Assembly (NCBI GenBank): GCA_024330185.1
Contig: JANDLV010000015.1
Coordinates: 1-64,000, forward strand
Source: Candidatus Siliceabacter maunaloa
Lineage (GTDB): Bacteria; Actinomycetota; Thermoleophilia; Solirubrobacterales; Solirubrobacteraceae
Length of the DNA: 64,000 nucleotides
Direction of reading: 5' to 3'
The position numbers and the translations under genes are program-made. The notes under the pieces are model-generated. The model searched no databases and was not told where the DNA came from. It saw only the letters and a program-made list of their open reading frames with translations. Positions 5,067-41,310 of the stretch are shown here, piece by piece. Numbering within the stretch: the first letter of the stretch is position 1; every line of letters begins with the position of its first letter.

Positions 5067-7443
5067 GCGGGCACGCCTCCCCTGGCCTCCTCGATGGCCT
5101 CCCACACCCGCATGGGCGTGAGCGGCATGTTCATGAACGTCACGCCCAGCGGGCGCAGCGCGTCGATGACCGCGTTGGTCACCGCGGCGGAGGCGCCGAT
5201 CGTGCCCGCCTCGCCGACGCCCTTGACCCCCAGCGAGTTGCTCGGGGAGGGCGTCTCCGTGCGGTCGGTCTCGAACATCGGGACCTCCGCCGCGCTGGGC
5301 AGCGAGTAGTCCACGAAGGTGCCCGTGACGAGCTGGCCGTCGTCGTCGTAGTGCACCCGCTCGTAGAGCGCCTGGCCGATCGCGTGGGTGATCCCGCCGT
5401 GGATCTGGCCGTCGATGATCATCGGGTTGACGGCCGGGCCGCAGTCGTCGACGGCGATGTACCGGGCAACCGCGACCTTTCCGGTCTCGCCGTCGACATC
5501 GACGATCGCCGCGTGCGCTCCGAACGGGAAGACGAAGTTCTCGGGGTCGTAGAACGTCGTCTCCTCCAGGCCCGGCTCCATGCCCTCGGGCAGGTTCTCG
5601 GGGATGTAGGCGGCGCCGGCCACCTCGGCCAGCGACATGCCGTGGTCGGGCGAGCCTCTGACCGAGAACCTGTCGCCGGACACCTCGATGTCCTGCGCGG
5701 CGGCCTCGAGCTCGTGCGCGACGATCGCCTTGGCCTTCTCGGCGACCTTCGCCGTGGCGCGCGCGATCGCCTCGCCGCCCACGCTCAGCGACCGCGAGCC
5801 GTAGGTGCCCAGGCCCTGGGGCCCGGTCCCGGTGTCGCCGTGGATGACCTCGACCACCTCGGGGTCGACGCCCAGCCGGTCGGCCACGATCTGGGCGAAG
5901 CTGGTGTCCAGACCCTGCCCGTGGGGCGATGCGCCCGAGTAGACGGTGACCGCGCCGGAGATGTGCACCCGCACCATCGCCGACTCCCACAGGCCGGTCT
6001 GTAACCCCAGCCCGCTGGGGCCCACGATGCGCGAGGGCGCCAGGCCGCAGATCTCCGTGTAGGTCGACAGCCCGATGCCGCGATAGATCCCGCGCCCGCG
6101 CAACTCGGCCTGCTCGCGCTTGAACGCCTCGACGTCGAGCTTGCCCATCAGCTTGTCCAGCGAGCCGTGGTAGTCGCCCGAGTCGTAGACGACGCCGGTG
6201 GCCACCTCGGCCGGGAAGCTCTCCTTGGGGATGAAGTTCTTGCGCCGGATGGCCGGCGGCGACATGCCCAGCTCCGAGGCGAGCTGATCGATCATCACCT
6301 CGACCATGTGCGTCGCCTCGGGCCGCCCGGCGCCCCGGATGGCGTCAGTGGACATCTTGTTGGTGAAGACCCCGGTGATGTCGGTCCGCACGTTGGGGAT
6401 GGCGTAGCAGCCGCCCATCACGAACGCCCCGAGGACCGGGATGACCGGGGTGAGCAGCATCAGATAGGCACCCAGGTCGGCGGTGATCTGCACGTGGAAC
6501 GCTGTGATCGTGCCGTCCTGTCTGGCGCCCATCCGGCAGGTGGCGATCTGGTCGCGGCCGTGGTGGGCGACCTGCATGTGCTCCGAGCGGGTCTCGATCC
6601 ACTTGATCGGCCGCTGCAGCCTGCGCGAGGCGTAGGCCAGCAGGACCTCCTCGCCGTAGAACTGCAGCTTGGCGCCGAAGCCACCACCGACCTCGGGCGC
6701 CACCGCGCGGATGCGCTCCTCGCTGATACCCAACTGGAGCGCGAGGAAGAGGCGCACGAAGTGAGGCACCTGCGTGGACGAGTGGATGGTCAGGGAGCCG
6801 GCGCGGAAGTCGGCGATGACGCCGCGCGGCTCGATCGGGGCGCCCGAGGTGCGGTGGTTGACGATCTCGCGCTGCACCACGACGTCGGCCTCGGCCAGGC
6901 CGGCCTCCACGTCCCCGCCGCCCAGCGAGAACTCGAACACCCTGTTGCTGCCCAGGTCCTCGTGCACGAGCGTCGCGCCGTCGGCCAGCGCGGCCCGCGG
7001 GTCGACGATCACGGGGAGCGACTCGTACTCCACGAGCACCTCCTCGGCGGCGTCGACGACCGCGTAGCGATCGGTGCCGACCACGATGGCGACAGGGTCG
7101 CCGACGTGGTTGACCTGGCCGCGGGCCAGCGCCCAGTGCGGGGCATTGGCGATCTCGGTCCCCGGCGGCACCCACGCACAGGGCAGCGGGGACTCCAGGT
7201 CGGTCATGTCCTGGCCGGTGAGGACCAGCTCGACGTCCTCGCGAGCCAGCGCTGCGCTGGAGTCGATGGAGACGATCATCGCGTGGGCCTCGGGCGAGCG
7301 CACGATGGCGGCGTGCAGCAGGCCCGGCACGGTCATGTCGTCCACGTAGCGTGCGCGGCCGGTGATGAGGCGCGGGTCCTCCTTGCGCTTCAGCGACCGG
7401 CCGACGTGCAGCGCGGCGCCGTTGGGCGCGGCCTCGGTGGCGG

Positions 7444-7447
<4 letters not shown>
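5063..7447 (-). CDS. coxL: Xanthine-oxidase-family molybdopterin large subunit (form II CoxL type)
   Basis: A 794-residue large subunit. Cofactor-binding motifs include [10 protein letters not shown] at 251-260 and a C-terminal [12 protein letters not shown] whose Glu, near residue 746, aligns with the catalytic glutamate of the family. The active-site loop reads RGAGR at 371-375. This is the form II signature (AYRGAGR type), not the AYXCSFR loop with the copper-binding Cys of form I CO dehydrogenase. The order S-L-M is also the form II order (form I is M-S-L). The substrate is therefore uncertain: form II enzymes are called putative CODHs, but many probably oxidise other carbonyl or N-heterocyclic compounds. 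Coupled by ATGA overlaps to coxS and coxM. Confidence 0.93.
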
Positions 7448-7953
<506 letters not shown>

Positions 7954-8058
7954 ACCCTCTCCTCCGGTTGATGGCAAAGCCGTAGCTTCGACAATAGGGG
8001 TTGCGCGCGGCCTCGCACAACAGGCAAGGGGTCCGTTTGACGACCCTGGCGCACGGGG

Positions 8059-8718
8059 ATGCGGTGGGGTATGGAGGGCGTCTACGCCGACCGCGCGGCG
8101 GCTGGCCGCGCGCTCGGCGCCGCCCTCGCGCGCGACGGCCGGACCAGAGGCGCGATGGTGCTCGCGTTGCCGCGCGGCGGCGTCCCGGTGGCCGCGGAGG
8201 TCGCGGCTGCGCTCGACGCTGCGCTGGACGTGCTTGTGGTGCGCAAGCTCGGCGTCCCCGGCCACGAGGAGCTGGCCATGGGCGCCGTCGCCGCGGGCGG
8301 CGTGCGCGTGCTCGACCAGCGCGTGGTGCGCGAGGCGGGCGTCGACGGCGAGGCCATCGCTGACGTGACCCGCCGCGGCCGTGAGGAGGTCGACCGCCAG
8401 GAGGCCGTCTTCCGCGGCGACCGTACGCCGCTGGCGCCACAGGCCGCACGCGCGATCGTGGTCGACGACGGGCTGGCCACCGGCTCGACCATGCGCGCCG
8501 CGGTGCGCGCGCTGCGCGCCATGGCCGCGGCGACGATCGTGGTCGCCGTGCCGGTCGGCTCAGCGCCGGCGGTGGAGTCGCTGCGCGACGAGGCCGACGC
8601 GGTGGTCTGCCCGTGCGTGCCCGAGCCGTTCGTCGCCGTAGGCGCCTGGTACGAGCGCTTCGAGCCCGTGGGCGAGGACGAGGTGCGCGCGCTGCTGGCT
8701 CGCCTGTCCCCGCGCTGA
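8059..8718 (+). CDS. Phosphoribosyltransferase-domain protein
   Basis: A 219-residue type I PRT-fold protein. It has [15 protein letters not shown] near residue 36 and the PRPP-binding loop [13 protein letters not shown] near residues 134-146. This family (often annotated as a putative phosphoribosyltransferase, near ComF and hypoxanthine PRT in fold) has no settled substrate. An alternative ATG at 8071 (MEGVYADR) fits family N-termini slightly better. Divergent from the cox operon with no evident functional link. Confidence 0.8.
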
Positions 8719-8800
8719 CGCCGTTGCCCGAGTCAACACCTCCTGCTCGCCGCGCCTGCTCGCCGCGCCTGCGGCCCCCTGGCTCGCTACCGTGCCCGCG

Positions 8801-9628
8801 ATGCGCCGCCTCCGCCTCCCCCTCGCCGCCACCCTCGCGACGCTCACCGTCCTGGCCGCCGGCCCGGCCCTCGCCCAGGAGCCCTCCCCGCAGGAGCCTG
8901 ACCCCGCCGCCTCGCTGGGGGTCACGGCCCCCAACCCCCAGCCGAAGGCCGACAACGAGTGCTACGAGCGCGACGACCTGCGCTGCCCCGACCTGCGCAT
9001 GGGCACCCCCCAGCAGGTCTACGTGCAGCGCACGCCCGCCGGGAGGACGCTGCTGCGCTCGCGCAACCGGCTGCAGAACCGCGGCGACGGCCCGCTGGCC
9101 CTCCACAGCGAGCGCGACGCCGACGAGAGCACCATGCGCGTGCGCCAGCGCATCTACCGCGACGGCGCCCGCGGGCACATCAGCCAGTCCACCCACGCGC
9201 GCCTGGACTTCTGGCGCATCCCCGGCCAGGGCGGCTACTGGAAGGTGCGCAACCCCGTCGAGTTCCAGGTCTGGACCATGGGCGAGCGCCGCGAGGTGGT
9301 CGCCGAGGGCGAGAAGAGCCGCTTCTGCATGCGCGACCTGTTCCGGCGCACCGGCGAGGGCCCGCAGCGCGCGGTCTTTCCGGCCTGCGCGCAGGACCGC
9401 GGCGACCGCTCCAACCGCCAGGGCATCTCGGTCGGCTGGGACGAGAGCTACCCGGGCGGCTACTTCGAGCAGTACGTCGACGTCAGCGACCTGCGCAACG
9501 GCTGTTACAAGCTCTGGCACACCGCGGACCCCAACGACCGCTTCGACGAGTCCGACGAGACCAACAACGCCTCGGGCGTGATCGTGGGCCTGCGCGACGG
9601 ACGCGTGCGCGTCGGCCGCTGTTTCTGA
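8801..9628 (+). CDS. Secreted lysyl-oxidase-like protein with degenerate copper motif
   Basis: A 275-residue protein from ATG 8801 (GTG 8792 is an alternative). Residues 1-27 form a signal peptide ([19 protein letters not shown]). The C-terminal half resembles bacterial lysyl-oxidase-like proteins: a [18 protein letters not shown] strand, the [14 protein letters not shown] turn, then VIVGL. The copper-binding stretch, normally three alternating His, here reads [11 protein letters not shown] with a single His, so catalysis by the usual copper/quinone mechanism is doubtful. Several Cys could form disulfides in the exported protein. It converges with the secreted glycosidase gene. Confidence 0.7.
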
Positions 9629-31130: not shown

Positions 31131-32615
31131 ATGAGCCTTGCGCGCCTTCTCACCGACACCGCCTCCCAGCACGGCGAGCGCACGGCGGTCAAGCTCGACG
31201 ACGTCGAGCTCACCTACCAGGCTCTCGACCAGGGTTCCCAGCTCGTGGCCGGCCTGCTGGCCTCCCACGGGGTGCAGCCCGGCGACCGCGTCGGGATCAT
31301 GCTGCCCAACGTCCCCTACTTCCCCGCCGTCTACTACGGGGTGCTGCGCGCGGGCGCGGTGGTCGTCCCGATGAACCCGCTGCTCAAGGGCCGGGAGGTG
31401 CAGTTCCACCTCGAGGACTCGGGCGCCAAGGTGCTGTTCGCCTGGCACGACTTCGCGCAGGACGCCGGCAAGGGCGCCGAGGCGGCCGGAGCGCAGCTGG
31501 TCAGCGTCGCTCCCGGCGAGTTCGAGAAGCTGCTGGGCGAGCAGGAGGCGCGCCCCGACGTGGTCGAGCGCGACGACGAGGACACCGCGGTCATCCTCTA
31601 CACCTCGGGCACCACCGGCACGCCCAAGGGCGCGGAGCTGACCCACCGCAACCTGCGGCGCAACGTCGAGGTGGCCACGGCTCTGTTCGACATGTCGCGC
31701 GACGACATCGTCTTCGGCGGACTGCCCTTCTTCCACTCCTTCGGCCAGACCTGCGCGCTCAACGCGACCATCTCCAGGGGCGCCACGATCACGTTGCTGC
31801 CGCGCTTCGAGCCCGAGAAGGCCTTCGAGGTCATCCAGCGCGACAAGGTGACGATCCTCGAGGGCGTGCCGACGATGTACTCGGCGCTGATCAACCACCC
31901 GGCCGGCGACACCTGCGACGCCTCGTCGCTGCGCGTGTGCGTCTCGGGCGGCTCCGCGCTGCCCGGCGAGGTGCTGCGCGGCTTCGAGGAGAAGTTCGAC
32001 GCGGCCATCCTCGAGGGCTACGGCCTGAGCGAGACCTCGCCGGTGGCCTCCTTCAACCACCCCGACCGGGAGCGCAAGGTCGGCTCCATCGGGACGCCGA
32101 TCGAGGGGGTGGAGATGAAGGTGGTCGACGACGACGGCAACGAGGTGGCACAGGGGGAGGTCGGCGAGATCGCCATCAAGGGCCACAACGTCATGAAGGG
32201 CTACTGGCAGCGCGACGACGCCACCCGGAAGGTCATGCGCGACGGCTGGTTCCACACGGGCGACATGGCCACCACCGACGAGGACGGCTACTTCTTCATC
32301 GTCGATCGAAAGAAGGACCTCATCATCCGCGGTGGCTACAACGTCTACCCGCGCGAGATCGAGGAGGTGCTCTACGAGCATCCGGCGGTCGCGGAGGCCG
32401 CGGTGGTCGGCGTTGCCCACGACGAGCTGGGCGAGGAGGTCGGCGCGGCGGTGACCCTCAAGGAGGGCGAGTCGGTCGACGAGGACACCCTGCGCGACTA
32501 CATCAAGGAGCAGGTCGCCGCCTACAAGTACCCGCGCCGGATCTGGTTCGTCGACGAGCTGCCCAAGGGCCCCACGGGCAAGATCCTCAAGCGCGAGATC
32601 GAAACGCCCAGCTGA
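31131..32615 (+). CDS. Acyl-CoA synthetase (AMP-forming)
   Basis: A 494-residue ANL-superfamily enzyme with the P-loop YTSGTTGTPKGAE, the GYGLSETSP motif, FHTGDMATTDEDGYF, and the C-terminal hinge DRKKDLIIRGGYNVYPREIE with catalytic Lys in PTGKILKREI. It resembles long-chain or medium-chain fatty acyl-CoA ligases (FadD). Complete. It ends overlapping the next frame by four bases. Confidence 0.92.
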   Translation: MSLARLLTDTASQHGERTAVKLDDVELTYQALDQGSQLVAGLLASHGVQPGDRVGIMLPNVPYFPAVYYGVLRAGAVVVPMNPLLKGREVQFHLEDSGAKVLFAWHDFAQDAGKGAEAAGAQLVSVAPGEFEKLLGEQEARPDVVERDDEDTAVILYTSGTTGTPKGAELTHRNLRRNVEVATALFDMSRDDIVFGGLPFFHSFGQTCALNATISRGATITLLPRFEPEKAFEVIQRDKVTILEGVPTMYSALINHPAGDTCDASSLRVCVSGGSALPGEVLRGFEEKFDAAILEGYGLSETSPVASFNHPDRERKVGSIGTPIEGVEMKVVDDDGNEVAQGEVGEIAIKGHNVMKGYWQRDDATRKVMRDGWFHTGDMATTDEDGYFFIVDRKKDLIIRGGYNVYPREIEEVLYEHPAVAEAAVVGVAHDELGEEVGAAVTLKEGESVDEDTLRDYIKEQVAAYKYPRRIWFVDELPKGPTGKILKREIETPS

Positions 32616-34063
32616 GCCGCTTCGACCTCATCGTGGTGGGCCTGGGCTCGGCGGGCATGACCGCCGCCCAGGCCGCTCCGCGCTTCGGCCTGCGCACTGC
32701 CGGGGTCGAGCGCGCGCGGGTCGGCGGGGACTGCCTGTGGACGGGCTGCGTGCCCTCCAAGGCCCTCATCGCCAGCGCGCGGCTGGCCCATCAGATGCGC
32801 CACGCCGACCGGCTGGGGCTGGAGCGCGTCGACCTGCGCGTGGACACCGCGAGGGTGTGGGCCAGGGTCCGCGCGGTTCAGGAGGACATCGCGGCCACCA
32901 GCGACAGCCCGCAGCGCTTCCGCGAGGCGGGCGCGGAGATCTTGGTTGGTGACGCGGCGCGACTGGTGGCCGGCGGGCGCCGTGGCCGGGGCGTCTCCAG
33001 GCGCTTGGCGCGCCCGGATGCGTCCCTCGCCGTGGAGGTGGACGGCCGCCTGCTCCGAGCGCGCCATGTGCTCATCTGCACGGGCAGCCGCCCGGCGACC
33101 CCGCCGGTCGAAGGGCTCGAGGAAGCCGGCTTCCTCACCTCCGAGACGCTGTTCACCCTGGAGCGCGCGCCGCGCAGCGTCGTCGTGCTGGGCGGAGGAC
33201 CGATCGCCGTCGAGATGGCCCAGGCGCTGGCGCGCCTGGGCGTAGAGGTGACCGTGCTGGAGAGGGGCGACGCCATCCTCTCACGTGACGAGCCCGAGCT
33301 GACCGCCCGCGTGGCCGCCCGGCTGGAGGCCGAGGGGGTGGCGCTGCACACCGCCACGGCGGCCGAGCGGGTGACGCTGGACGGCGACGGCGCCAAGCGC
33401 GTGCACGCGGGTGAGCGGTCGTTCGTCGCCCAGGAGCTGCTCGTGGCCGCGGGGCGTGCGCCCAACGTCGAGGGGCTGGGCCTGGAGGACGCCGGCGTCG
33501 CGGTGGGCCCCAAGGGCATCGTGGTAGACGACCGGCTGCGCACGAGCCGGCGTGGCGTGTGGGCGGCGGGCGACGTGACGGGCGGGCCCCTGTTCACCCA
33601 CGCGGCCGGCTTCGACGCCGCCCGCGCGGTGCGCAACCTCGCCTTCCCCGGCGCCGGCGGGCCGGCCGACGAGGTGCCCTGGACGACGTTCACCGACCCC
33701 GAGCTGGCCCACGTCGGCCTGACCGCCGCGCAGGCGCGCGATCGTCACGGCGACGATGACGTCGAGGTGCATCGCATGGAGCTGGCCGACTCCGACCGCG
33801 CGCGGGCCGAGGACGCCACCGACGGCGCCATCGTCGTCGTCACCGCGAAGGGGCGCATCGTCGGCGCCCACGTGCTCGCGCCCGCAGCCGGCGAGCTCAT
33901 CCACGAGCTGGCCCTGGCGTTACGAAAGGGCCTGGACCTTCGCGAGCTGGCGGGGATGGTCCACGTGTACCCGACCTACGCGGTGGACCTCCAGCGCCTG
34001 GCCGGCGAGGCGGCCTACGCGCGGGGCGAGAAGGTGCGGTTCCTCACCCGGCTGGCTCGCTGA
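32612..34063 (+). CDS. Pyridine nucleotide-disulfide oxidoreductase
   Basis: A class I FAD disulfide reductase of about 483 residues: the FAD loop VVGLGSAGMTAA, the redox pair GGDCLWTGCVPSKAL, the NAD(P) loop VVLGGGPIAVEMA, the second FAD motif GVWAAGDVTGG, and the catalytic HVYPTYAVDLQRLA near the C-terminus, where His is the expected base. It is closest to mercuric reductase or dihydrolipoamide dehydrogenase-like proteins of unknown substrate. No ATG is available at the expected N-terminus; CTG 32612 (overlapping the upstream stop as CTGA) gives LSRFDLIVVG, while GTG 32633 would remove half of the first FAD strand. I favour the upstream start. Confidence 0.87.
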   Translation: MSRFDLIVVGLGSAGMTAAQAAPRFGLRTAGVERARVGGDCLWTGCVPSKALIASARLAHQMRHADRLGLERVDLRVDTARVWARVRAVQEDIAATSDSPQRFREAGAEILVGDAARLVAGGRRGRGVSRRLARPDASLAVEVDGRLLRARHVLICTGSRPATPPVEGLEEAGFLTSETLFTLERAPRSVVVLGGGPIAVEMAQALARLGVEVTVLERGDAILSRDEPELTARVAARLEAEGVALHTATAAERVTLDGDGAKRVHAGERSFVAQELLVAAGRAPNVEGLGLEDAGVAVGPKGIVVDDRLRTSRRGVWAAGDVTGGPLFTHAAGFDAARAVRNLAFPGAGGPADEVPWTTFTDPELAHVGLTAAQARDRHGDDDVEVHRMELADSDRARAEDATDGAIVVVTAKGRIVGAHVLAPAAGELIHELALALRKGLDLRELAGMVHVYPTYAVDLQRLAGEAAYARGEKVRFLTRLAR

Positions 34064-34141: not shown

Positions 34142-35563
34142 TCAGACGTTCGCGGGCTCGGGCTCGCTGCGGTGGAGGGGCAGCAGTTCGGCCAGGCGCA
34201 GGTTCTCGTCGGGGTCGAGCACCGAGTGCTGGGCGCAGGCGGGCACAAGGCGCCCGTCGTCGGGGTGGGCCATCGCGTAGGAGCAGGACTGCAGGCGCTC
34301 CTGGGTGGCGCGGATGCGCGGGTCGTCGGACATGACGCCCTGCTCGAGCAGCTCCCAGGCCGGGCGCACGTCGCGGGCGTCCATGAACGCGTGCATGACG
34401 AACGTGATCGTCTTGGGCCGGTTGGCGCGCAGGTGGCGCACGCCCCCCGCGCGGCGCACCAGGCGCACGGCCCACCCGGCACCGTGGGGCAGGACCTGCG
34501 GCCGGCGCGCGATGGCCCGGGCGGCGCGGGCGGCCAGCAGCGCCGGTGGGGCGACGAGGTCCATGCCGCCGAAGCCGGCCAGGAAGTCCCCGAGCACCCG
34601 TTGGTCGCGGGGATCGTCCTCGTCGAGAACCGGCGCGTAGCGGTCGCCCGCGTAGAGGCCGTAGGCGGTGCGGTTGCAGCGCTCGTCGCCGACCTGGACG
34701 GCGCGGAAGTGCAGCCGCGACCCGGCGCCCTCCTCGATCCGCGTCCATACCTCGTCGGTGGAGAAGGCGCGGTAGGCGTCCTTCCAGCGCGCCTCGTTGC
34801 CCACGAAGGCGGCGGGCTGGAAGGAGAACATGCGAAAGCCCATGTCGCGGCAGTCGCGCACGACCCGGGCCACCTGGTCGATGTTGCGCGGGGTGACCGT
34901 CATGTTGTGGGCCAGGTAGTGCTTGATGCCGTGCTCGCGCTCCAGGCGCTGGAACATCTGGCAGAAGCGCTCGCGGTAGGGGTTGAGCTCGGCCTCGTTC
35001 CTGACACGCTTGATGCCTCGGCGACCGAACATCATGGAGTCGAAGTGGCCGGCGAAGCTGAGGAAGTCGAAGCGCCGCTCGCCGGTATCGGGGTCGAGGG
35101 CCAGCGCCTCGAGGTGGTCGTAGTCGAAGTCGCCGTGGCTCATGGACATCGGCTTGCGCCCGTGGCGGTGCATGGCCTGCAGCGCTGCCGCGTGATCGTC
35201 GGGGGAAAGAAGCGTCACCTCGCCGCCGATGAGCTGGGCGTTCTGCCCGGGGCCGCGCAGCTCGCGCAGCAGGGCCATCTGGCGATCGACCTCGCGCTGG
35301 GTGTGCGGGCCGTCCACGCGCACCCGGTTGGCCTCCTTGGCGTGGTAGCACGGGGTGCAGGCCAGATTGCAGCGGGGGAACACGCCGTGGGTGCCCTCGC
35401 AGCCCGCGCTGCGGGTGCCCAGCATCTGGTTGGGGGTCTTGACGTGGGTGGGCAGATCCTCCCAGCGACGCGCGAGCGCGGCGGTGAGGTCGGGGTGCTC
35501 GGGGCGCGTCGCGACCTCCAGGGCACGCAGGCGGTCGAGCAGGCTCCTCACCACGGTCGGCAC
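34142..35563 (-). CDS. Radical SAM protein of unknown function
   Basis: A 473-residue protein with the radical SAM cluster motif C65-x3-C69-x2-C72 (PRCNLACTPCYH) preceded by GCEGTHGVF. Other conserved-looking segments are QLIGGEVTLLSPDDHAAAL, HGDFDYDHL, LSFAGHFDSMMFGRRGI and HNMTVTPRNIDQVARVV. Several C-terminal Cys (QSCSYAMAHPDD, VPACAQHS) could hold a further cluster or act in catalysis. Homologues occur in actinobacteria; I know of no assigned reaction. The TIGR04283-like glycosyltransferase gene lies 46 bases upstream in the same direction, so a shared pathway is plausible. Confidence 0.85.
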   Translation of the reverse strand: MPTVVRSLLDRLRALEVATRPEHPDLTAALARRWEDLPTHVKTPNQMLGTRSAGCEGTHGVFPRCNLACTPCYHAKEANRVRVDGPHTQREVDRQMALLRELRGPGQNAQLIGGEVTLLSPDDHAAALQAMHRHGRKPMSMSHGDFDYDHLEALALDPDTGERRFDFLSFAGHFDSMMFGRRGIKRVRNEAELNPYRERFCQMFQRLEREHGIKHYLAHNMTVTPRNIDQVARVVRDCRDMGFRMFSFQPAAFVGNEARWKDAYRAFSTDEVWTRIEEGAGSRLHFRAVQVGDERCNRTAYGLYAGDRYAPVLDEDDPRDQRVLGDFLAGFGGMDLVAPPALLAARAARAIARRPQVLPHGAGWAVRLVRRAGGVRHLRANRPKTITFVMHAFMDARDVRPAWELLEQGVMSDDPRIRATQERLQSCSYAMAHPDDGRLVPACAQHSVLDPDENLRLAELLPLHRSEPEPANV

Positions 35564-35609: not shown

Positions 35610-36302
35610 TCATCGCACCACCCGGTAGAGGTCGACCAGCCGCTGGGGCGGGACGCCGGCCACGTAGAGCCAGCGGATGACCCACCACGACAGCAGCGTG
35701 CGGGCGACGCCCATCTCCCGCCAGCGGCGGTCGGACGTGGTCGCCGGCCCGGGCAGGCAGCGCGTGGGCCCGTGACGCTCCAGCCGGCGCACGAGGTCGT
35801 AGTCGTCCATGATCGGCAGCTCGCGGAAGCCGCCCAGGGCCGCCCAGGCCTCGCGGCGCAGCCATACGGAGGAGTCGCCGTAGTAGAAGCCCCGCCGGCG
35901 CTGGAACGCGTAGACGCGCCCCATGAGCGCCGCGAAGGCGTCCCCGCCGTCGAAGCGCAGCGCGAAGTTCCCTCCCACCGCGCCCTCCCGCAGGGCCTGC
36001 GCGAGCGACGCGTAGGCGTCGGCGGGCAGCCGGCTGTCGGCGTGAAGGAAGAGCAGGACGTCGCCGCAGGCCGCGCCCGCCGCGGCGTTGCACTGCGCGG
36101 CGCGCCCACCGCCGGCCTGCAGCACCCGCGCGCCCACCGCGTGCTCGCGGGCGACATCCACCGTCGCGTCGCGCGACCCGCCGTCGCACACCACCACCTC
36201 GAAGCGCCCGTGCAGGCCCGCCAGGTGGTCCAGGGTCCCCGGCAGCGCCTGCTCCTCGTGCAGCGCGGGGACCAGGATCGAGACCAGCGGGCCCTCGCTC
36301 AC
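35610..36302 (-). CDS. Family 2 glycosyltransferase (TIGR04283-like)
   Basis: A 230-residue GT-A protein starting at GTG 36302: VSILVPALHEEQALPGTL, FEVVVCDGGSRDATVDVA, GDVLLFLHADSRLP with the metal-binding HAD, GNFALRFD, and MDDYDLVRRLERHG. This small family is frequently paired with TIGR04282 proteins and with radical SAM enzymes in arsenosugar and other clusters. No arsenic-specific gene is seen here. Its start overlaps the stop of the damaged Doc gene (GTGA). Confidence 0.88.
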   Translation of the reverse strand: MSEGPLVSILVPALHEEQALPGTLDHLAGLHGRFEVVVCDGGSRDATVDVAREHAVGARVLQAGGGRAAQCNAAAGAACGDVLLFLHADSRLPADAYASLAQALREGAVGGNFALRFDGGDAFAALMGRVYAFQRRRGFYYGDSSVWLRREAWAALGGFRELPIMDDYDLVRRLERHGPTRCLPGPATTSDRRWREMGVARTLLSWWVIRWLYVAGVPPQRLVDLYRVVR

Positions 36303-36601
36303 GCCAGCCGCGATCGCACCCAGGCCACGAGCTCGTCATGGGTGGTCTCGCCCGATGCGGCGCGCTCGACCATCTCGGCGTCGCCGAGGTCGTCGTCGTC
36401 GGGCCAGGGCCGACCGTTCTCGCGCAGGAAGAAGCCGAACAGGAGGAAGGCCGTCCTCTCTCCGAAGCCCTGGCGTGGCACGGCGAGCGCGGACTCGGCC
36501 AACTTGAGGTTCGGTAGGCGGCGTATCGCCTCAGGCGAGGCGCCGAGCACGCTGCTCGCAGCGTCGACGAAGTCCCCGAGACCCGGGTACCAGGTATCCA
36601 A
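36299..36601 (-). pseudogene. Doc/Fic-family toxin with the active-site segment deleted
   Basis: From TTG 36601, 100 codons match death-on-curing proteins at both ends: WYPGLGDFVDAASSVLG and LAESALAVPRQGFG at the N-terminal side, RTAFLLFGFFLRENGRPW on the C-terminal side. The Fic motif HPFxDGNK(R) that normally lies between them is missing: GFG is joined in frame directly to ERTAFL. About 30 residues are deleted. Without the His and phosphate-binding loop the protein cannot AMPylate or phosphorylate a target. The upstream HTH protein is the presumed antitoxin. Confidence 0.72.
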
Positions 36602-36605
36602 GCCG

Positions 36606-36845
36606 TCAGCGGGCGAGCCGGTCGAACGTCTTGGGACGACCGGCGATGAAATCGCGGTACTCCTGGGCACGCTCCTCGGGGGTACCCGGCAGATTGCGCT
36701 CGAGACCATCGTCCTTCTCGGTGAGATGCTCCAGTCGCGACCGCACGCTGGCGACGTCCAACTCGAGCCGCTGTGCGATCTCCTCGCGGCTGTGACCGGC
36801 GGCGGCAAGATCGAGCAGTTCGCGATCCAGTGTTGCCCGTTCCAT
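36606..36845 (-). CDS. Small HTH protein, probable antitoxin of the Doc remnant
   Basis: A 79-residue protein, MERATLDRELLDLAAAGHS..., with a sigma-region-4-like HTH (REEIAQRLELDVASVRSRLEHL) followed by a charged tail (RAQEYRDFIAGRPKTFDRLAR) that suits toxin binding. It ends four bases before the Doc remnant's start. Assigned from position and architecture only. Confidence 0.6.
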   Translation of the reverse strand: MERATLDRELLDLAAAGHSREEIAQRLELDVASVRSRLEHLTEKDDGLERNLPGTPEERAQEYRDFIAGRPKTFDRLAR

Positions 36846-36879
36846 GGTCGACAGGATACGCTGCTCACGCCGGCTCGCG

Positions 36880-37087
36880 CACCTGTCGAACTCGACCACG
36901 GAGAGGGCCTGGGCAAGGTGAGGGTCTACGTCGACGGCGAGCACGTGTGTCGACGATCGCACCGGCTCCAGCGCGGAACTTCCGTTTCGAGGTCGCGGGA
37001 CGTTCGGCGATCGTCCGCATCAAGCAGGAGCTGCTGGGCTTCCAGTACGACTACCGGCTGGTCGTCGACGGCGCCGAGATCCCATAG
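36880..37087 (+). pseudogene. Remnant of a FAIM1-like (Fas apoptotic inhibitory molecule) gene
   Basis: Two plus-strand segments in different frames together resemble the beta-sandwich FAIM1 family, which also occurs in bacteria. The first is VELDHGEGLGKVRVYVDGEH (about 36888-36947). The second, from about 36968, is NFRFEVAGRSAIVRIKQELL followed by GFQYDYRLVVDGAEIP and a stop at 37087. A one-base frame change and loss of intervening residues separate them. No start codon or promoter remains. The HTH gene opposite overlaps none of the recognisable homology. Confidence 0.5.
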
Positions 37088-37096
37088 GCCCAACGC

Positions 37097-38797
37097 TCAG
37101 ACGGCGCAGTGGAAGGCGTCGGGCAGGGAGCCGTCGGCCTGGCGCAGGCGCAGGAAGCGCTCGACGATCCGGCGCTTGGCCTCTGCGAGTGACACCTCGC
37201 CCTCGGCGATGAGGAAGTCCGGTGAGGCGTCGCGGTCGCCGCCGACCGGGTGCCAGTGGACGCCGTCGGTGGTGACGGTGAGCTCGGGGACCATCACGGC
37301 GTCGGAGACCTGGATGGCGCCGTCGACCTCCGCGGCGAAGCCGCGCTGCACCAGCGGGCGCACCGCGAAGCCGTCGCCGGTGATGCCCATGGTGGCCAGC
37401 CGGGCGCGCAGCGGCTCGACCTCATCGCGGTTGTCGGGCGTCTGGGTCATGGCCACACGCAGCGGCAGGCCCAGGGACGACGCGTACTCCAGCCCCTCCA
37501 TCGCCCGTCCCCAGGAGCCCGCGCCGCGCCAGCGGTCGTGGGTCTGCGCGAGCGCGCCGTCGACCGAGCTCTGCAGGACGAGGCCGTCGCGGCCGGCCAG
37601 GCGGGCCAGCTCGCGCCGCCGGCGCCCGGTGAACAGCATCGCGTTGGTCAGCACCACCGTCTCCAGGCGGTCGCTGGCGTACTCGATCATCTCCAGGATG
37701 TCGGGATGCACGAACGGCTCGCCGCCGGTCAGGTAGACCTCGGTGAAGCCCTCGCGCACCGCCTCGTCGATCAGCGAGCGAAAGCGCCAGCTCGGGATCT
37801 CGCGGCGGCGCGCCTTGGGGGAGGAGGCCACGACGCAGTACTCGCAGGCCAGGTTGCAGTGGAAGTTGGTGTAGACCCACAGCCGCGGCGGGAACAACGG
37901 CGTGCCGAACAGTGAGACCACCGGGCGCCCGTCGTCCGGGATTTCCACCGGCTCGGCCCAGCCGGCGCCGTCGGCGCCCTCGAACCCGGCGGGCATGGCC
38001 TCGCGGTAGACGTGGAACGCGCCGCGGGCGCGCTCGGGCGGTGGGACGATCTCCAGGCACGTCGTCCACCACCCGGTCTCCACGGTCTCCACAAAGGGCT
38101 CGGGCAGCCCCGCGGCCCGCATCGAGGCGGCTTGCGCGCGCCAGTCGTAGGCCAGCGGGATGAGCTCGGCGCGGGCATCACCGGCCTCGAGGTCGACGAT
38201 CGCGTACCAGGTCTCGCGCCGCCCGTCGTTGGCCGGGCGCCCGACGGTGCCGACGTTGACGACCAGCGTGTCGTCGACGCGGCGCTGCCAGGGGATGCCC
38301 GTGTGGGTGCACAGCAGCAGGTCGGGGCGCTCGCCGGCGCAGCCGTCCAGGCGCAGGCGCAGCTCGTCGTCGTCCAGGGACTCCCACAGGAAGTCGTTGA
38401 TGACCAGCGGGGAGCCGTGGACCATTTGGACGTCCACCCCGCCGATGGTCTCCCGCAGCTCGCCGGGCAGCTCATGCATCCAGGCCGCGAAGGCCCGGCT
38501 CGTGTGGGCCAGCGTGTGGTCGTACATGAGCTGGGCGAAGTGGTTGTCGCGCTCGTCGGCGTAGCCGCAGCCGCAGTCGGGGTCGCCGCGGCCGATGGCC
38601 ACGTCGTAGTTGCCCGCGATGCACTCGACGCCGCCGTCGGTGAGCAGCGGCCACACCGCGTCGCACTCGGCGCCGAAGCCCCCCAGGTCGCCCAGGCTGA
38701 CGAGACGCTCGCAGCCCCGGGCGCGCGCATCATCCAGGCACGCGGCCACCGCGTAGGGATTGGCGTAGGCCCCGCCGAAGGCTGCGATCCGCGTCAT
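37097..38797 (-). CDS. Phosphoesterase-like domain fused to a radical SAM domain
   Basis: A 566-residue fusion from ATG 38797. Residues 1-245 follow the calcineurin/YfcE-type layout: LGDLGGFGAECDAV at 35-48, GNYD at 62-65, VHGSP at 126-130 and THTG at 164-167. However, the first metal motif (normally SDIHGN) reads FGGAYANP, so the D-x-H ligands are absent. A linker leads to the radical SAM domain at about 300-566 with C314-x3-C318-x2-C321 (HCNLACEYC) and YLTGGEPFVHPDI. The C-terminus ends with further Cys (AFHCAV). I know no characterised protein of this architecture. It is divergent from a flavoprotein gene across 23 bases. Confidence 0.85.
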   Translation of the reverse strand: MTRIAAFGGAYANPYAVAACLDDARARGCERLVSLGDLGGFGAECDAVWPLLTDGGVECIAGNYDVAIGRGDPDCGCGYADERDNHFAQLMYDHTLAHTSRAFAAWMHELPGELRETIGGVDVQMVHGSPLVINDFLWESLDDDELRLRLDGCAGERPDLLLCTHTGIPWQRRVDDTLVVNVGTVGRPANDGRRETWYAIVDLEAGDARAELIPLAYDWRAQAASMRAAGLPEPFVETVETGWWTTCLEIVPPPERARGAFHVYREAMPAGFEGADGAGWAEPVEIPDDGRPVVSLFGTPLFPPRLWVYTNFHCNLACEYCVVASSPKARRREIPSWRFRSLIDEAVREGFTEVYLTGGEPFVHPDILEMIEYASDRLETVVLTNAMLFTGRRRRELARLAGRDGLVLQSSVDGALAQTHDRWRGAGSWGRAMEGLEYASSLGLPLRVAMTQTPDNRDEVEPLRARLATMGITGDGFAVRPLVQRGFAAEVDGAIQVSDAVMVPELTVTTDGVHWHPVGGDRDASPDFLIAEGEVSLAEAKRRIVERFLRLRQADGSLPDAFHCAV

Positions 38798-38820
38798 AAC
38801 CTGACCATAGACTGTCACCC
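38798..38820. promoter_or_regulatory. Overlapping divergent promoters for two leaderless genes
   Basis: Only 23 bases separate the ATGs at 38797 (minus) and 38821 (plus). The minus-strand -10-like TATGGT occupies 38809-38804, six bases from its ATG. The plus-strand -10-like TAGACT occupies 38808-38813, seven bases from its ATG. The two elements overlap by two bases, so initiation in the two directions should be mutually exclusive and both messages should lack a leader. Confidence 0.5.
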
Positions 38821-39999
38821 ATGAGCCACCCCCTCCGTCTGGCTGTCCTTGGCGCCGGCCCGATCGGCCTCGAGGTCGCCCTGGCCGCCGCGCAGCGCAA
38901 CCTGGACTTCACCGTCTTCGAGGCCGGCGACGCGGTGGGCGGCCACGTGCGCCGGTGGAGCCACGTGCGCACCTTCACACCGTGGTCGATGACCGTGTCG
39001 CCGCGGGCACGCGCCGTTCTGCCCGGGGCTCCCGACGGCGACGAGCTTCCCACCGGCGGCGACCTCGTCGAGCACCTGCTCGAGCCCCTTGCGGCGACCG
39101 CGCCGCTGGCCGGCCGGCTGCGCACCGGGACGCGCGTGCTGGCCGTGGCGCGCGAGGGGATGCTCAAGCACGAGCACATCGGCAACCGCGGGGCGGGCGG
39201 CCGGCCCTTCCGGCTGCTCGTCCGACGTGCCGACGGCAGCGAGGCCATCGAGCGCGCCGACGTGGTCATCGACGCCACCGGCACCTACTCCAACCCCAAC
39301 CGCCTGGGCGACGGCGGCATCGACGCGGTCAACGAGCGCGCGCTGGAGCACCGCATCGACCGCTACCTGCCCGACTTCACGCGCGAGGCCGACGGGTGGG
39401 CGGGGCGCACCGTACTGCTCAGCGGTTCCGGGCACTCGGCCCAGACCGCCGCACGGGCCCTTGCCGCCTTCGCCGCCCGGGCGCCGGGCACCCGTGTGGT
39501 GTGGGCCGTACGCAACCCGCGTCCCGACTGGGGCGCCGTGGCCGACGATCCGCTGCGCCAGCGCGCCGCCCTGAACGCCGCCGCGGCGGAGCTTGCCGGC
39601 GGGGCGACCAGCGCCGTCGAGGTGCTCCCCGGCCGGGTCACCGAGGCGCTGGCCGAGCGCGACGGGCGCATGGTCGTGACGCTGCGCAACGGCGGCAGCG
39701 AGGAGGTCGAGGTCGACCGGATCCTCGCCCTCAACGGCGGTGTGGGCGACCACGCGCTGTACCGCCAGCTCCAGGTCCACGAGTGCTACGCCACCGCGGG
39801 TCCGATGAATCTCGCGGCCACGCTGCTGGGCGAGACCGGCGCCGACTGCCTGGCCGTCGGCTCCGCCGGAGCAGAGACGCTCGTGAACCCGGAGCCCGGG
39901 TTCTTCATCCTCGGCGCCAAGTCCTACGGGCGCAACTCGCAGTTCCTGCTGCGCACGGGCTGGCAGCAGGTCGATGACGTGTTCGGCTCCCTGCTCTAG
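38821..39999 (+). CDS. FAD-dependent NAD(P)-binding oxidoreductase (monooxygenase-like)
   Basis: A 392-residue flavoprotein: FAD loop LAVLGAGPIGLEVALAA, FEAGDAVGGHVRRWSHVRTF (like flavin monooxygenases and TrxB-like proteins), DATGTYSNPN, the second nucleotide loop VLLSGSGHSAQTAA, and GFFILGAKSYGRNSQFLL close to the C-terminus. It lacks a redox-active CxxC, so a disulfide reductase role is unlikely. The divergent, promoter-sharing radical SAM fusion is its probable pathway partner. Substrate unknown. Confidence 0.83.
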   Translation: MSHPLRLAVLGAGPIGLEVALAAAQRNLDFTVFEAGDAVGGHVRRWSHVRTFTPWSMTVSPRARAVLPGAPDGDELPTGGDLVEHLLEPLAATAPLAGRLRTGTRVLAVAREGMLKHEHIGNRGAGGRPFRLLVRRADGSEAIERADVVIDATGTYSNPNRLGDGGIDAVNERALEHRIDRYLPDFTREADGWAGRTVLLSGSGHSAQTAARALAAFAARAPGTRVVWAVRNPRPDWGAVADDPLRQRAALNAAAAELAGGATSAVEVLPGRVTEALAERDGRMVVTLRNGGSEEVEVDRILALNGGVGDHALYRQLQVHECYATAGPMNLAATLLGETGADCLAVGSAGAETLVNPEPGFFILGAKSYGRNSQFLLRTGWQQVDDVFGSLL

Positions 40000-40051
40000 C
40001 GTCGCCGACCGCACGTACTTCCGAACAACGCCACCAGCGAAAGGACCACTC

Positions 40052-40447
40052 ATGGCCGACTTCTCCTCCGCGCGGATCAGCGAGCTCGAGCCCTTCTACC
40101 AGGGCTTGTTCCTCAAGGCGCGCGCCGCCGTGGGGGCGCAGTCCTTTGGGCTCGCGGTGGTCGAGCTGGGGCCCGGGGCCGACGCCCACCCGCTGCACGA
40201 CCATCCCGGCGGCCAGGAGGAGGTCTACGCGGTGCTGCGGGGCACTGGGGAGCTGGAGATCGAGGGCGAGTCGCAGCGCATCCCGCTGGACTCCGAGACC
40301 ATCGTGCGCGTGGGGCCCGACTCCAAGCGCAAGATCCACCCGGGCCCCGACGGGATGCGCCTACTGGCCATCGGCGGCACGCCGGGCGAGGCCTACGAGG
40401 CGCCGGCGTACAGCGAGCTCGGCGCCCCTGACCCCTTGGGCGCATAG
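40052..40447 (+). CDS. Cupin-domain protein
   Basis: A 131-residue single cupin. Motif 1 reads PGADAHPLHDHPGGQEEVYAV with metal-ligand candidates in HPLHDH and E; motif 2 lies near IVRVGPDSKRKIHPGPDG. Such small cupins act as isomerases, dioxygenases or metabolite-binding proteins; nothing points to one role. It follows the flavoprotein by 52 bases in the same direction and may be co-transcribed. Confidence 0.85.
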   Translation: MADFSSARISELEPFYQGLFLKARAAVGAQSFGLAVVELGPGADAHPLHDHPGGQEEVYAVLRGTGELEIEGESQRIPLDSETIVRVGPDSKRKIHPGPDGMRLLAIGGTPGEAYEAPAYSELGAPDPLGA

Positions 40448-40500: not shown

Positions 40501-41310
40501 GTGCTGCTCGCGCGGCGGTTCTCCCCGTCCGCGGTGGCGGGGTTCCTCGTGGCCTCGCAGCGAAGGGCCGGGGAGGTGCGCCGCGCGCGGCCCGAGCTGG
40601 GGCGCCGGTCGCGGGCGTGGATCGCCGTGGGCGCGGGCGCCTACGCGTGCGCGGGCGGCGTATGGGCGGCGTACGGGGCCGCGGGGCCACCGCCCCTCCG
40701 GATGCGCACCGCCGCCGCGTGGTGGTCGGCCACCTGGCTCATGCTCGACTGGCACCTGGGCATGGTGGAGACGCAGGACGGGCGGCCACGCAACCTCGCG
40801 GCGGCGGACGCGATGACGCTCGCGAGGGTGTGGATGGTGCCCGTCGCGCTGGAGGCGCCGACAGCCTCCCTGGCGCTGGCCGCCTTCGCCACCGACGTCC
40901 TCGACGGCCGCCTGGCCCGCGCGAGCGAGCCCACGCGGATCGGCCGCGACCTCGAGGGGCTGGCCGACAGCGCCTTCGCCGCCGCGGCGCTGCGCGGCGC
41001 GGTGCGCCGCGGGTGGTTGGCGCCGGCCATCGCCCACGCCGAGATGGCGCGGCTGGGCGTGGGCTTCGCCTACGCGCTGGGCGTGTACTTCGGCTCGGCC
41101 CAGCGGCCCGACCCAGCGGTCACCCGCGCAGCCAAGGCCACCACGCCGGTGCGCGTGGCGGGCCTGATGGCCGCGGGCGCCGGGCGCCCGCGCCTCGCCG
41201 CGGCGCTGGTGGGCGGCGGGGCGGCGTGGAGCGTCGGCGCGGTGGTCACGGCGTTGGCGCGGCGCCCTCCGTCGCGGGCAGCAGCGGCACCGCGGCGTCC
41301 CAGTCGCTGA
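40501..41310 (+). CDS. CDP-alcohol phosphatidyltransferase-like membrane protein
   Basis: A 269-residue protein from GTG 40501 with about six hydrophobic helices. The signature region TDVLDGRLARASEPTRIGRDLEGLAD matches the CDP-alcohol pattern D-x2-DG-x2-AR...G-x3-D-x3-D except for two points: seven instead of eight residues after AR, and Glu at the first of the last two Asp positions. It may transfer a phospho-alcohol to or from CDP-diacylglycerol, but the altered motif makes activity uncertain. Its 3' end overlaps the convergent lipoprotein gene by 65 bases. Confidence 0.75.
   Translation: MLLARRFSPSAVAGFLVASQRRAGEVRRARPELGRRSRAWIAVGAGAYACAGGVWAAYGAAGPPPLRMRTAAAWWSATWLMLDWHLGMVETQDGRPRNLAAADAMTLARVWMVPVALEAPTASLALAAFATDVLDGRLARASEPTRIGRDLEGLADSAFAAAALRGAVRRGWLAPAIAHAEMARLGVGFAYALGVYFGSAQRPDPAVTRAAKATTPVRVAGLMAAGAGRPRLAAALVGGGAAWSVGAVVTALARRPPSRAAAAPRRPSR

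What the first reader, a model, noticed from the sequence alone, without database searches (positions are those of the whole stretch)
37097..40447. Undescribed gene set: eroded phosphoesterase fused to radical SAM, a promoter-sharing flavoprotein, and a cupin
The 566-residue protein joins a calcineurin-like domain lacking its first D-x-H metal motif (FGGAYANP for SDIHGN) to a complete radical SAM domain. The flavoprotein gene diverges from it across 23 bases with overlapping -10 elements, and a cupin gene follows. Radical SAM, flavin oxidoreductase and cupin together suggest a small-molecule or cofactor modification pathway in which the phosphoesterase domain may serve as substrate-binding module. 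No such pathway is known to me.
Basis: partly seen in the sequence, partly recalled or inferred. Interest (0 to 1): 0.7.

Follow-up and report, generated by a model that had tools for sequence, protein, structure and literature searches.

The report
Probable arsenosugar-pathway fusion enzyme without ArsS
The odd fused enzyme is a conserved bacterial protein whose halves and neighbours trace back to arsenic-handling genes, so it most likely builds arsenic-containing sugars by a route that replaces the only known enzyme for that step; no experiment has yet shown this.

Summary
The fusion, flavoprotein and cupin are all real. The interpretation changes once neighbours and relatives are examined.

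TIGR04283 occurs in 20/20 fusion genomes among 201 of the order, against 5/181 others. The flavoprotein association recurs; the cupin's barely does.

The phosphoesterase half is not randomly eroded. One complete metal site (D, H, H) is replaced by G, Y, G in 39/39 fusions and 4/4 split relatives. The second-site ligands and a DCxC motif are kept. This variant is one side of a single tree branch (100/100).

Its intact relatives sit in ars resistance operons (12/12 loci in this order). The altered variant sits beside ArsS, the known arsenosugar radical SAM enzyme, in Bacteroidota (3 of 4 loci). In other bacteria it is adjacent or fused to a different radical SAM domain, and ArsS is then absent from all 39 genomes tested.

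Best explanation: an ArsS-independent, arsenosugar-type organoarsenical pathway in which this radical SAM half makes the arsenic–carbon bond. The link to arsenic metabolism is well supported by gene context; the exact chemistry is inferred. Some fusion genomes lack a detectable arsenite methyltransferase, the main weakness.

The parts
37097..38797 (-). Fusion protein, 566 aa: metal-site-altered metallophosphoesterase (res 1-~245) + linker + radical SAM (res ~295-566)
38063..38797 (-). Metallophosphoesterase-fold half (res 1-245), DxH -> G9xY11 and GHxH -> xHTG167; D37, N63, H127, H165 and D-C75-x-C77 kept
38765..38773 (-). Codons for G9-A10-Y11, which replace D-x-H (metal 1 ligands)
   Evidence: G9 and Y11 invariant in 39/39 fusions and 4/4 split forms; D and H in 12/12 ars-operon relatives
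38567..38575 (-). Codons for C75-G76-C77 (family-specific CxC motif)
   Evidence: both Cys conserved in all fusion, split and ars-operon rows
37100..37915 (-). Radical SAM half (res 295-566), nearest NCBIfam NF049973 Rv1681 (266 bits, cut-off 380)
37835..37858 (-). CNLACEYC, the [4Fe-4S]-binding CxxxCxxC (res 314-321)
   Evidence: C314, C318, C321 invariant
38821..39999 (+). Flavoprotein, Pyr_redox_3 type, 392 aa; 40-42% relatives sit beside arsR and arsK-like genes in ars operons
40052..40447 (+). Cupin_2 protein, 131 aa; accessory, seen beside the fusion in only two other independent loci
40501..41310 (+). CDP-alcohol phosphatidyltransferase-family protein, recurrent in the Solirubrobacterales-type clusters
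35610..36302 (-). TIGR04283 glycosyltransferase (210 bits, cut-off 182), named for arsenosugar biosynthesis
34142..35563 (-). Second radical SAM protein, weakly like tetraether lipid synthase Tes (27 bits); CNLACTPC motif
32612..34063 (+). MerA / lipoamide-dehydrogenase-like FAD oxidoreductase (start codon uncertain, possibly CTG 32612)

Best explanation
The locus encodes part of an organoarsenical (arsenosugar-type) biosynthetic pathway that uses no ArsS. The fusion joins an arsenic-pathway phosphoesterase, which has lost one whole metal site and probably now binds rather than hydrolyses its ligand, to a radical SAM domain. Proposed working: arsenic (as arsenite or methylated arsenite) is bound by the N-terminal half through its remaining metal site and/or the CxC pair. 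The radical SAM half cleaves S-adenosylmethionine and attaches the 5'-deoxyadenosyl group to arsenic, as ArsS does. An MTAP-like phosphorylase then removes adenine, leaving a 5-arseno-ribose phosphate. The TIGR04282/TIGR04283 enzymes elaborate the sugar. The MerA-like protein and the flavoprotein set the arsenic redox state. The CDP-alcohol phosphatidyltransferase, where present, may attach the product to lipid. Shown by tools: the domains, the fixed motif changes, the gene context, and the absence of ArsS. Inferred: every reaction step, the ligand of the N-terminal half and the identity of the product.
For: (1) Intact homologues of the phosphoesterase half (33-38% id) lie in ars operons in 12/12 loci fetched from the order (ArsR, ArsC, ArsM, aquaporin, ArsD, ArsA; NCBIfam ArsA 754 bits, ArsD 116, ArsM 293); loci around radical-SAM-only homologues gave 0/4. 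(2) The altered variant lies beside ArsS itself (TIGR04167, 436-446 bits, cut-off 300) in Bacteroidota L130, L131, L132, with TIGR04169 (arsenosugar-associated peroxidase-like; a stand-alone gene in L130, on the same reading frame as the phosphoesterase in L132 and apparently in L131) and an SSS symporter. (3) In Deltaproteobacteria the same SSS symporter family and the same phosphoesterase variant flank a radical SAM gene that is not ArsS (L042, L046, L047), and ArsS is absent from 19/19 further fusion/split genomes and 201/201 genomes of the order. (4) Ignavibacteria L041 has flavoprotein - ArsM - radical SAM - altered phosphoesterase in one run. (5) TIGR04283 in 20/20 fusion genomes vs 5/181 (p 3e-23, kinship not corrected); TIGR04282 and an MTAP-like phosphorylase adjoin in Streptomyces and other relatives; both occur unlinked in the window's own genome. 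(6) Flavoprotein relatives lie between arsR and an arsK-like gene (L068-L070). (7) Loss of the metal-1 ligands is one branch, 100/100. ArsS chemistry as reported by Cheng et al. 2021, cited in PMC12159101.
Against: ArsM is not a consistent partner: 13/20 fusion genomes vs 84/181 others (p 0.09); none in G063 (single contig, 93% complete, two copies of the cluster) nor in the seven PhnD-type or similar genomes G210-G214, G218, G219. In the PhnD-type group the fusion adjoins a phosphonate-type ABC transporter and, in several, sugar-catabolic genes instead of the glycosyltransferases. In most fusion clusters no ars gene is within the fetched flank. The names 'arsenosugar biosynthesis glycosyltransferase' are NCBI inferences. 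The radical SAM half scores only 48 bits to the ArsS model (cut-off 300). The second radical SAM protein has no explained role and occurs without the fusion in 10 genomes of the order. No biochemical data.
Confidence: 0.62

Rival explanations
1. The pathway is arsenic-related but the radical SAM half does different chemistry from ArsS, for example transferring another part of SAM to arsenic (as ArsL does in arsinothricin) or acting on a later intermediate, with the second, Tes-like radical SAM protein making or extending the arsenic product.
For: Two radical SAM proteins occur in most clusters; the radical SAM half is in a different family from ArsS (48 vs 300 bits); the L041 ArsM scores best against the arsinothricin ArsM model (356 bits, below its cut-off of 500); radical SAM enzymes are known to make C-As bonds in more than one way (PMC12159101, PMC8552651).
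Against: The MTAP-like phosphorylase and the TIGR04282/4283 pair fit an adenosylated intermediate; the altered phosphoesterase adjoins ArsS specifically in Bacteroidota.
Confidence: 0.2
2. Neofunctionalised system: halves of arsenic ancestry now serve a non-arsenic substrate such as a phosphonate or another phosphate-like or selenium compound; the PhnD-type group would be the telling case.
For: PhnD/PhnE genes adjoin the fusion in L014, L016, L017, L020, L031, L036 and PhnD-like Rv1680-family proteins adjoin the stand-alone radical SAM relatives L043-L045; no ArsM in those PhnD-type fusion genomes tested.
Against: The Bacteroidota ArsS operons and the Ignavibacteria ArsM operon carry the same altered phosphoesterase; flavoprotein relatives are in ars operons.
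Confidence: 0.13
3. Catabolic direction: the system takes up and dismantles organoarsenicals (arsenosugars) rather than making them.
For: ABC transporter, FGGY kinase, class II aldolase and 2-hydroxyacid dehydrogenase genes beside the fusion in L014, L016 and L036, not all in each.
Against: Most clusters carry two glycosyltransferase-type enzymes and no catabolic set; the ArsS-linked operons are considered biosynthetic.
Confidence: 0.05

Closest known systems
ArsS (TIGR04167) arsenosugar radical SAM enzyme and its gene cluster
   Same: Radical SAM enzyme beside the same altered phosphoesterase and the same SSS symporter family; TIGR04282/TIGR04283 enzymes associated; ArsM in some clusters
   Different: Radical SAM half is not in the ArsS family (48 vs cut-off 300 bits), is fused to the phosphoesterase, and ArsS is absent from all 39 fusion/split genomes tested
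Ap4A hydrolase SapH / YfcE-type metallophosphoesterases (3qfm, 1nnw, 3rqz)
   Same: Fold of the N-terminal half (Z 25-27); metal-2 ligands kept
   Different: Metal-1 ligands D, H, H replaced by G, Y, G in all members; extra DCxC motif
Rv1681 family radical SAM (NF049973; M. tuberculosis Rv1681/MoeX)
   Same: Closest named family of the C-terminal half, 266 bits
   Different: Below the family cut-off of 380; the PhnD-like partner seen beside stand-alone L043-L045 is lacking in most fusion clusters
ArsO flavin monooxygenase (NF040505)
   Same: An ars-operon relative of the flavoprotein hits it weakly (57.7 bits)
   Different: Window flavoprotein scores 17.6 bits (cut-off 425)
Arsinothricin cluster arsQML (PMC8552651)
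   Same: Radical SAM plus ArsM making a C-As bond in a bacterial ars operon
   Different: No phosphoesterase, flavoprotein or glycosyltransferases in arsQML

Membership tests
ArsS (TIGR04167) | Score over the curated cut-off of 300 bits | tested here: not met
   48.4 bits for the fusion; no ArsS in 201 genomes of the order or 19 further fusion/split genomes
ArsS-type arsenosugar gene cluster | TIGR04283 transferase in the cluster | tested here: met
   210 bits vs cut-off 182; 20/20 fusion genomes
ArsS-type arsenosugar gene cluster | TIGR04282 transferase | tested here: met
   Own genome, unlinked, 135.5 vs cut-off 134 bits; linked in Streptomyces and other relatives
ArsS-type arsenosugar gene cluster | Arsenite methyltransferase ArsM available | tested here: inconclusive
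   Present, unlinked, in the window's genome (G000:C38, 293.6 bits); absent from 7/20 fusion genomes of the order and from the PhnD-type genomes tested
ArsS-type arsenosugar gene cluster | Makes a dimethylarsinoyl-ribose product | not testable with these tools
   needs mass spectrometry
Metallophosphoesterase (active, dinuclear) | D-x-H and G-H-x-H metal-1 ligands | tested here: not met
   G-x-Y and H-T/S-G in 39/39 fusions
Metallophosphoesterase (active, dinuclear) | Fold | tested here: met
   Pfam Metallophos_2 41.8 bits; 1nnw Z 27.1
Radical SAM superfamily | CxxxCxxC and domain score over cut-off | tested here: met
   PF04055 61.9 vs 29.5 bits; C314, C318, C321 invariant in 35 sequences
Rv1681 family (NF049973) | Score over the cut-off of 380 bits | tested here: not met
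   266 bits
ArsO (NF040505) for the flavoprotein | Score over the cut-off of 425 bits | tested here: not met
   17.6 bits

The most novel reading that the evidence does not exclude
A second, independently evolved way of making the arsenic-carbon bond of arsenosugars: a radical SAM enzyme outside the ArsS family, fused to a phosphoesterase remodelled into an arsenical-binding (substrate-loading) domain, present in Streptomyces and other Actinomycetota, which to my knowledge are not known to make arsenosugars.
Probability: 0.45. Interest if true: 0.78.

Novelty: new variant of a known kind. Interest (0 to 1): 0.62.

Why it matters
If true, bacterial arsenosugar-type biosynthesis extends to Actinomycetota, including culturable Streptomyces, through an enzyme that annotation does not connect with arsenic. 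It would give an unexplained ars-operon phosphoesterase family a role, show how a hydrolase active site was turned into something else in what looks like one evolutionary step, and offer a concrete place to test how soil bacteria make complex organoarsenicals. It also warns that the label 'arsenosugar biosynthesis glycosyltransferase' is applied in genomes with no ArsS.

Tried and rejected
Cupin as a core component: rejected (two other independent loci). Shared overlapping promoter: no consensus support. Random erosion of the phosphoesterase: rejected. ArsS elsewhere in these genomes: not found. Genome-level co-occurrence of the fusion with ArsM: not significant (p 0.09). Rv1681 literature: 14 papers, mostly on tuberculosis biomarkers, antigens or diagnostics by title and abstract start; none was read for a function of Rv1681. 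Literature on TIGR04283: none held. 'ars operon' + metallophosphoesterase and 'arsenic' + calcineurin-like phosphoesterase: papers listed but not read in full; no title or abstract start describes this family. PDB sequence search for the second radical SAM protein: no match. Distances between C75, C77 and the metal site could not be measured because model coordinates are not exposed. Ars-gene baits were actinobacterial, so the count in Bacteroidota (9 of 15 intact loci with an ars gene within about 8 kb) is probably low.
Full report
What is there. The minus-strand gene 37097-38797 encodes 566 residues: a metallophosphoesterase-fold half and a radical SAM half, both predicted confidently and joined by a linker of low confidence. 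Structure comparison gives 1nnw, 2gju, 3rqz and the Ap4A hydrolase SapH for the first half (Z 25-27) and SkfB, SuiB, BlsE and viperin for the second (Z 19-23). The flavoprotein starts 23 bases away on the other strand and a cupin follows.

How conserved it is. One genome-collection scan and a 201-genome survey of the order gave about 40 distinct full-length fusions, from Solirubrobacterales-type genomes through Acidimicrobiales and Streptomyces to a genome labelled Acidobacteriota. Neighbour maps show a recurring set: fusion, TIGR04282, TIGR04283, second radical SAM protein, MerA-like protein, and variably an MTAP-like phosphorylase, an MFS transporter, the flavoprotein, the CDP-alcohol enzyme and DUF427. 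Streptomyces L021, L023 and L037 have VTT protein, methyltransferase, MerA-like, second radical SAM, MTAP-like, TIGR04282, TIGR04283, fusion and flavoprotein in order (families). TIGR04283 is in 20/20 fusion genomes and 5/181 others; the flavoprotein in 11/20 and 1/181 (relatedness is not corrected for). The second radical SAM protein is in 19/20 fusion genomes and in 10 others. The cupin occurs in only two other independent loci (L011, L038).

The altered metal site. Aligning the N-terminal half with its relatives shows that D-x-H is G-x-Y and that the last H of GHxH is G in 39/39 fusions and in 4/4 unfused versions, while the second-site ligands D37, N63, H127 and H165 are invariant and a DCxC motif is shared with the intact relatives. 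A tree of 55 sequences puts all altered forms on one side of a single branch with 100/100 support. The tool warns of long branches around the four Bacteroidota altered forms. The change therefore appears to predate the fusion and concerns one metal site as a set, which argues for a new use and against decay.

The arsenic link. Searching for the arsenite methyltransferase ArsM placed it within 1-2 kb of many stand-alone phosphoesterase homologues found. Fetching loci chosen by their phosphoesterase match and testing them showed that all 12 stand-alone homologues, which keep the intact metal motifs, lie among ars genes, for example ArsC - phosphoesterase - aquaporin - ArsD - ArsA in L077. None of four loci chosen for a radical-SAM-only homologue has ars genes. 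The flavoprotein's 40-42% relatives lie between arsR and an arsK-like gene (L068-L070).

The ArsS link. In Bacteroidota most homologues are intact, but four are altered like the fusion. Three of these adjoin ArsS (436-446 bits, cut-off 300). All four adjoin an SSS symporter, and the fourth genome has ArsS elsewhere. TIGR04169, a protein family named for arsenosugar biosynthesis, is on the same reading frame as the phosphoesterase in L132. In Deltaproteobacteria L042, L046 and L047 the same symporter family and the altered phosphoesterase flank a radical SAM gene of the other kind. In Ignavibacteria L041 the run is flavoprotein, ArsM, radical SAM, altered phosphoesterase (ArsM by NF040538, 356 bits, below its cut-off of 500 but with the cysteines I know as typical of ArsM). 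ArsS is absent from every fusion or split genome tested: 20 in the order and 19 elsewhere. So the radical SAM half stands where ArsS stands.

Mechanism. ArsS adenosylates arsenic in arsenosugar biosynthesis (Cheng et al. 2021, cited in PMC12159101). By analogy I propose that the radical SAM half makes the arsenic-carbon bond, that the MTAP-like phosphorylase removes adenine, and that TIGR04282/4283 elaborate the sugar. The window's genome holds an unlinked MTAP-like gene (52% id to the Streptomyces cluster copy), TIGR04282, and ArsM with ArsR and ArsC nearby. These reaction steps are inference. The role of the N-terminal half (binding an arsenical through the remaining metal site or the CxC pair) is inference too.

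Limits. ArsM is missing from several fusion genomes, including one on a single contig with two cluster copies. One group of clusters replaces the glycosyltransferases with a phosphonate-type transporter and, in several, sugar-catabolic genes. Genome-level association with ArsM is not significant. No reaction has been observed. I hold the assignment to arsenic metabolism at about 0.75-0.8 overall, and the specific ArsS-replacing explanation at 0.62.

Novelty. No held paper found in ten searches describes the fusion, its phosphoesterase family in ars operons, or an ArsS-independent arsenosugar cluster. Most subscription papers are not held and most listed papers were not read in full, so this is not proof of absence. 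I class it as a new variant of a known kind.

Noticed in passing
L043, L044, L045 (radical SAM at about 10001 in L043/L044, 1231 in L045): Stand-alone relatives of the radical SAM half (42%) follow a PhnD-like protein; the L044 one scores 419 bits to the Rv1680 family (cut-off 400), so this is the Rv1680-Rv1681 pair of mycobacteria in other Actinomycetota. Function unknown.
   Followed up: partly
L014, L016, L017, L020, L031, L036: A second type of fusion locus, next to phosphonate-type ABC transporter genes; in several, FGGY kinase, class II aldolase or 2-hydroxyacid dehydrogenase genes lie on the other side. No ArsM in those genomes tested.
   Followed up: partly
L073-L080, L082, L086, L133-L147: An intact metallophosphoesterase family with a DCGC motif is a common, apparently undescribed member of ars resistance operons in two phyla; in L134, L136 and L145 it is duplicated in tandem.
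   Followed up: partly
window 34142-35563: Tes-like radical SAM protein with no named family or solved relative; in 19 of 20 fusion genomes but also in 10 genomes without the fusion. Its reaction is unexplained.
   Followed up: partly
L087 and L088 (one genome, G063): Two separate copies of the cluster on one contig; the L087 copy also has a cytochrome P450-like ORF (7384-8709) and a methyltransferase-like ORF (8673-9341) between the second radical SAM protein and the fusion.
   Followed up: no
G049, G061, G082, G139, G175: Genomes with TIGR04283 but no detected fusion; in G175 TIGR04283 adjoins the second radical SAM protein, and in G061 it lies within 2 kb of a 34% radical SAM relative.
   Followed up: partly
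window 36606-36962: Small ORF between the glycosyltransferase and the fusion; an overlapping reading (36299-36916) had no family match. Not seen in relatives.
   Followed up: no
window 31131-32612: Acyl-CoA-synthetase-like gene just upstream of the MerA-like gene (sequence cluster C7, with homologues near some other fusion loci); membership in the pathway untested.
   Followed up: no
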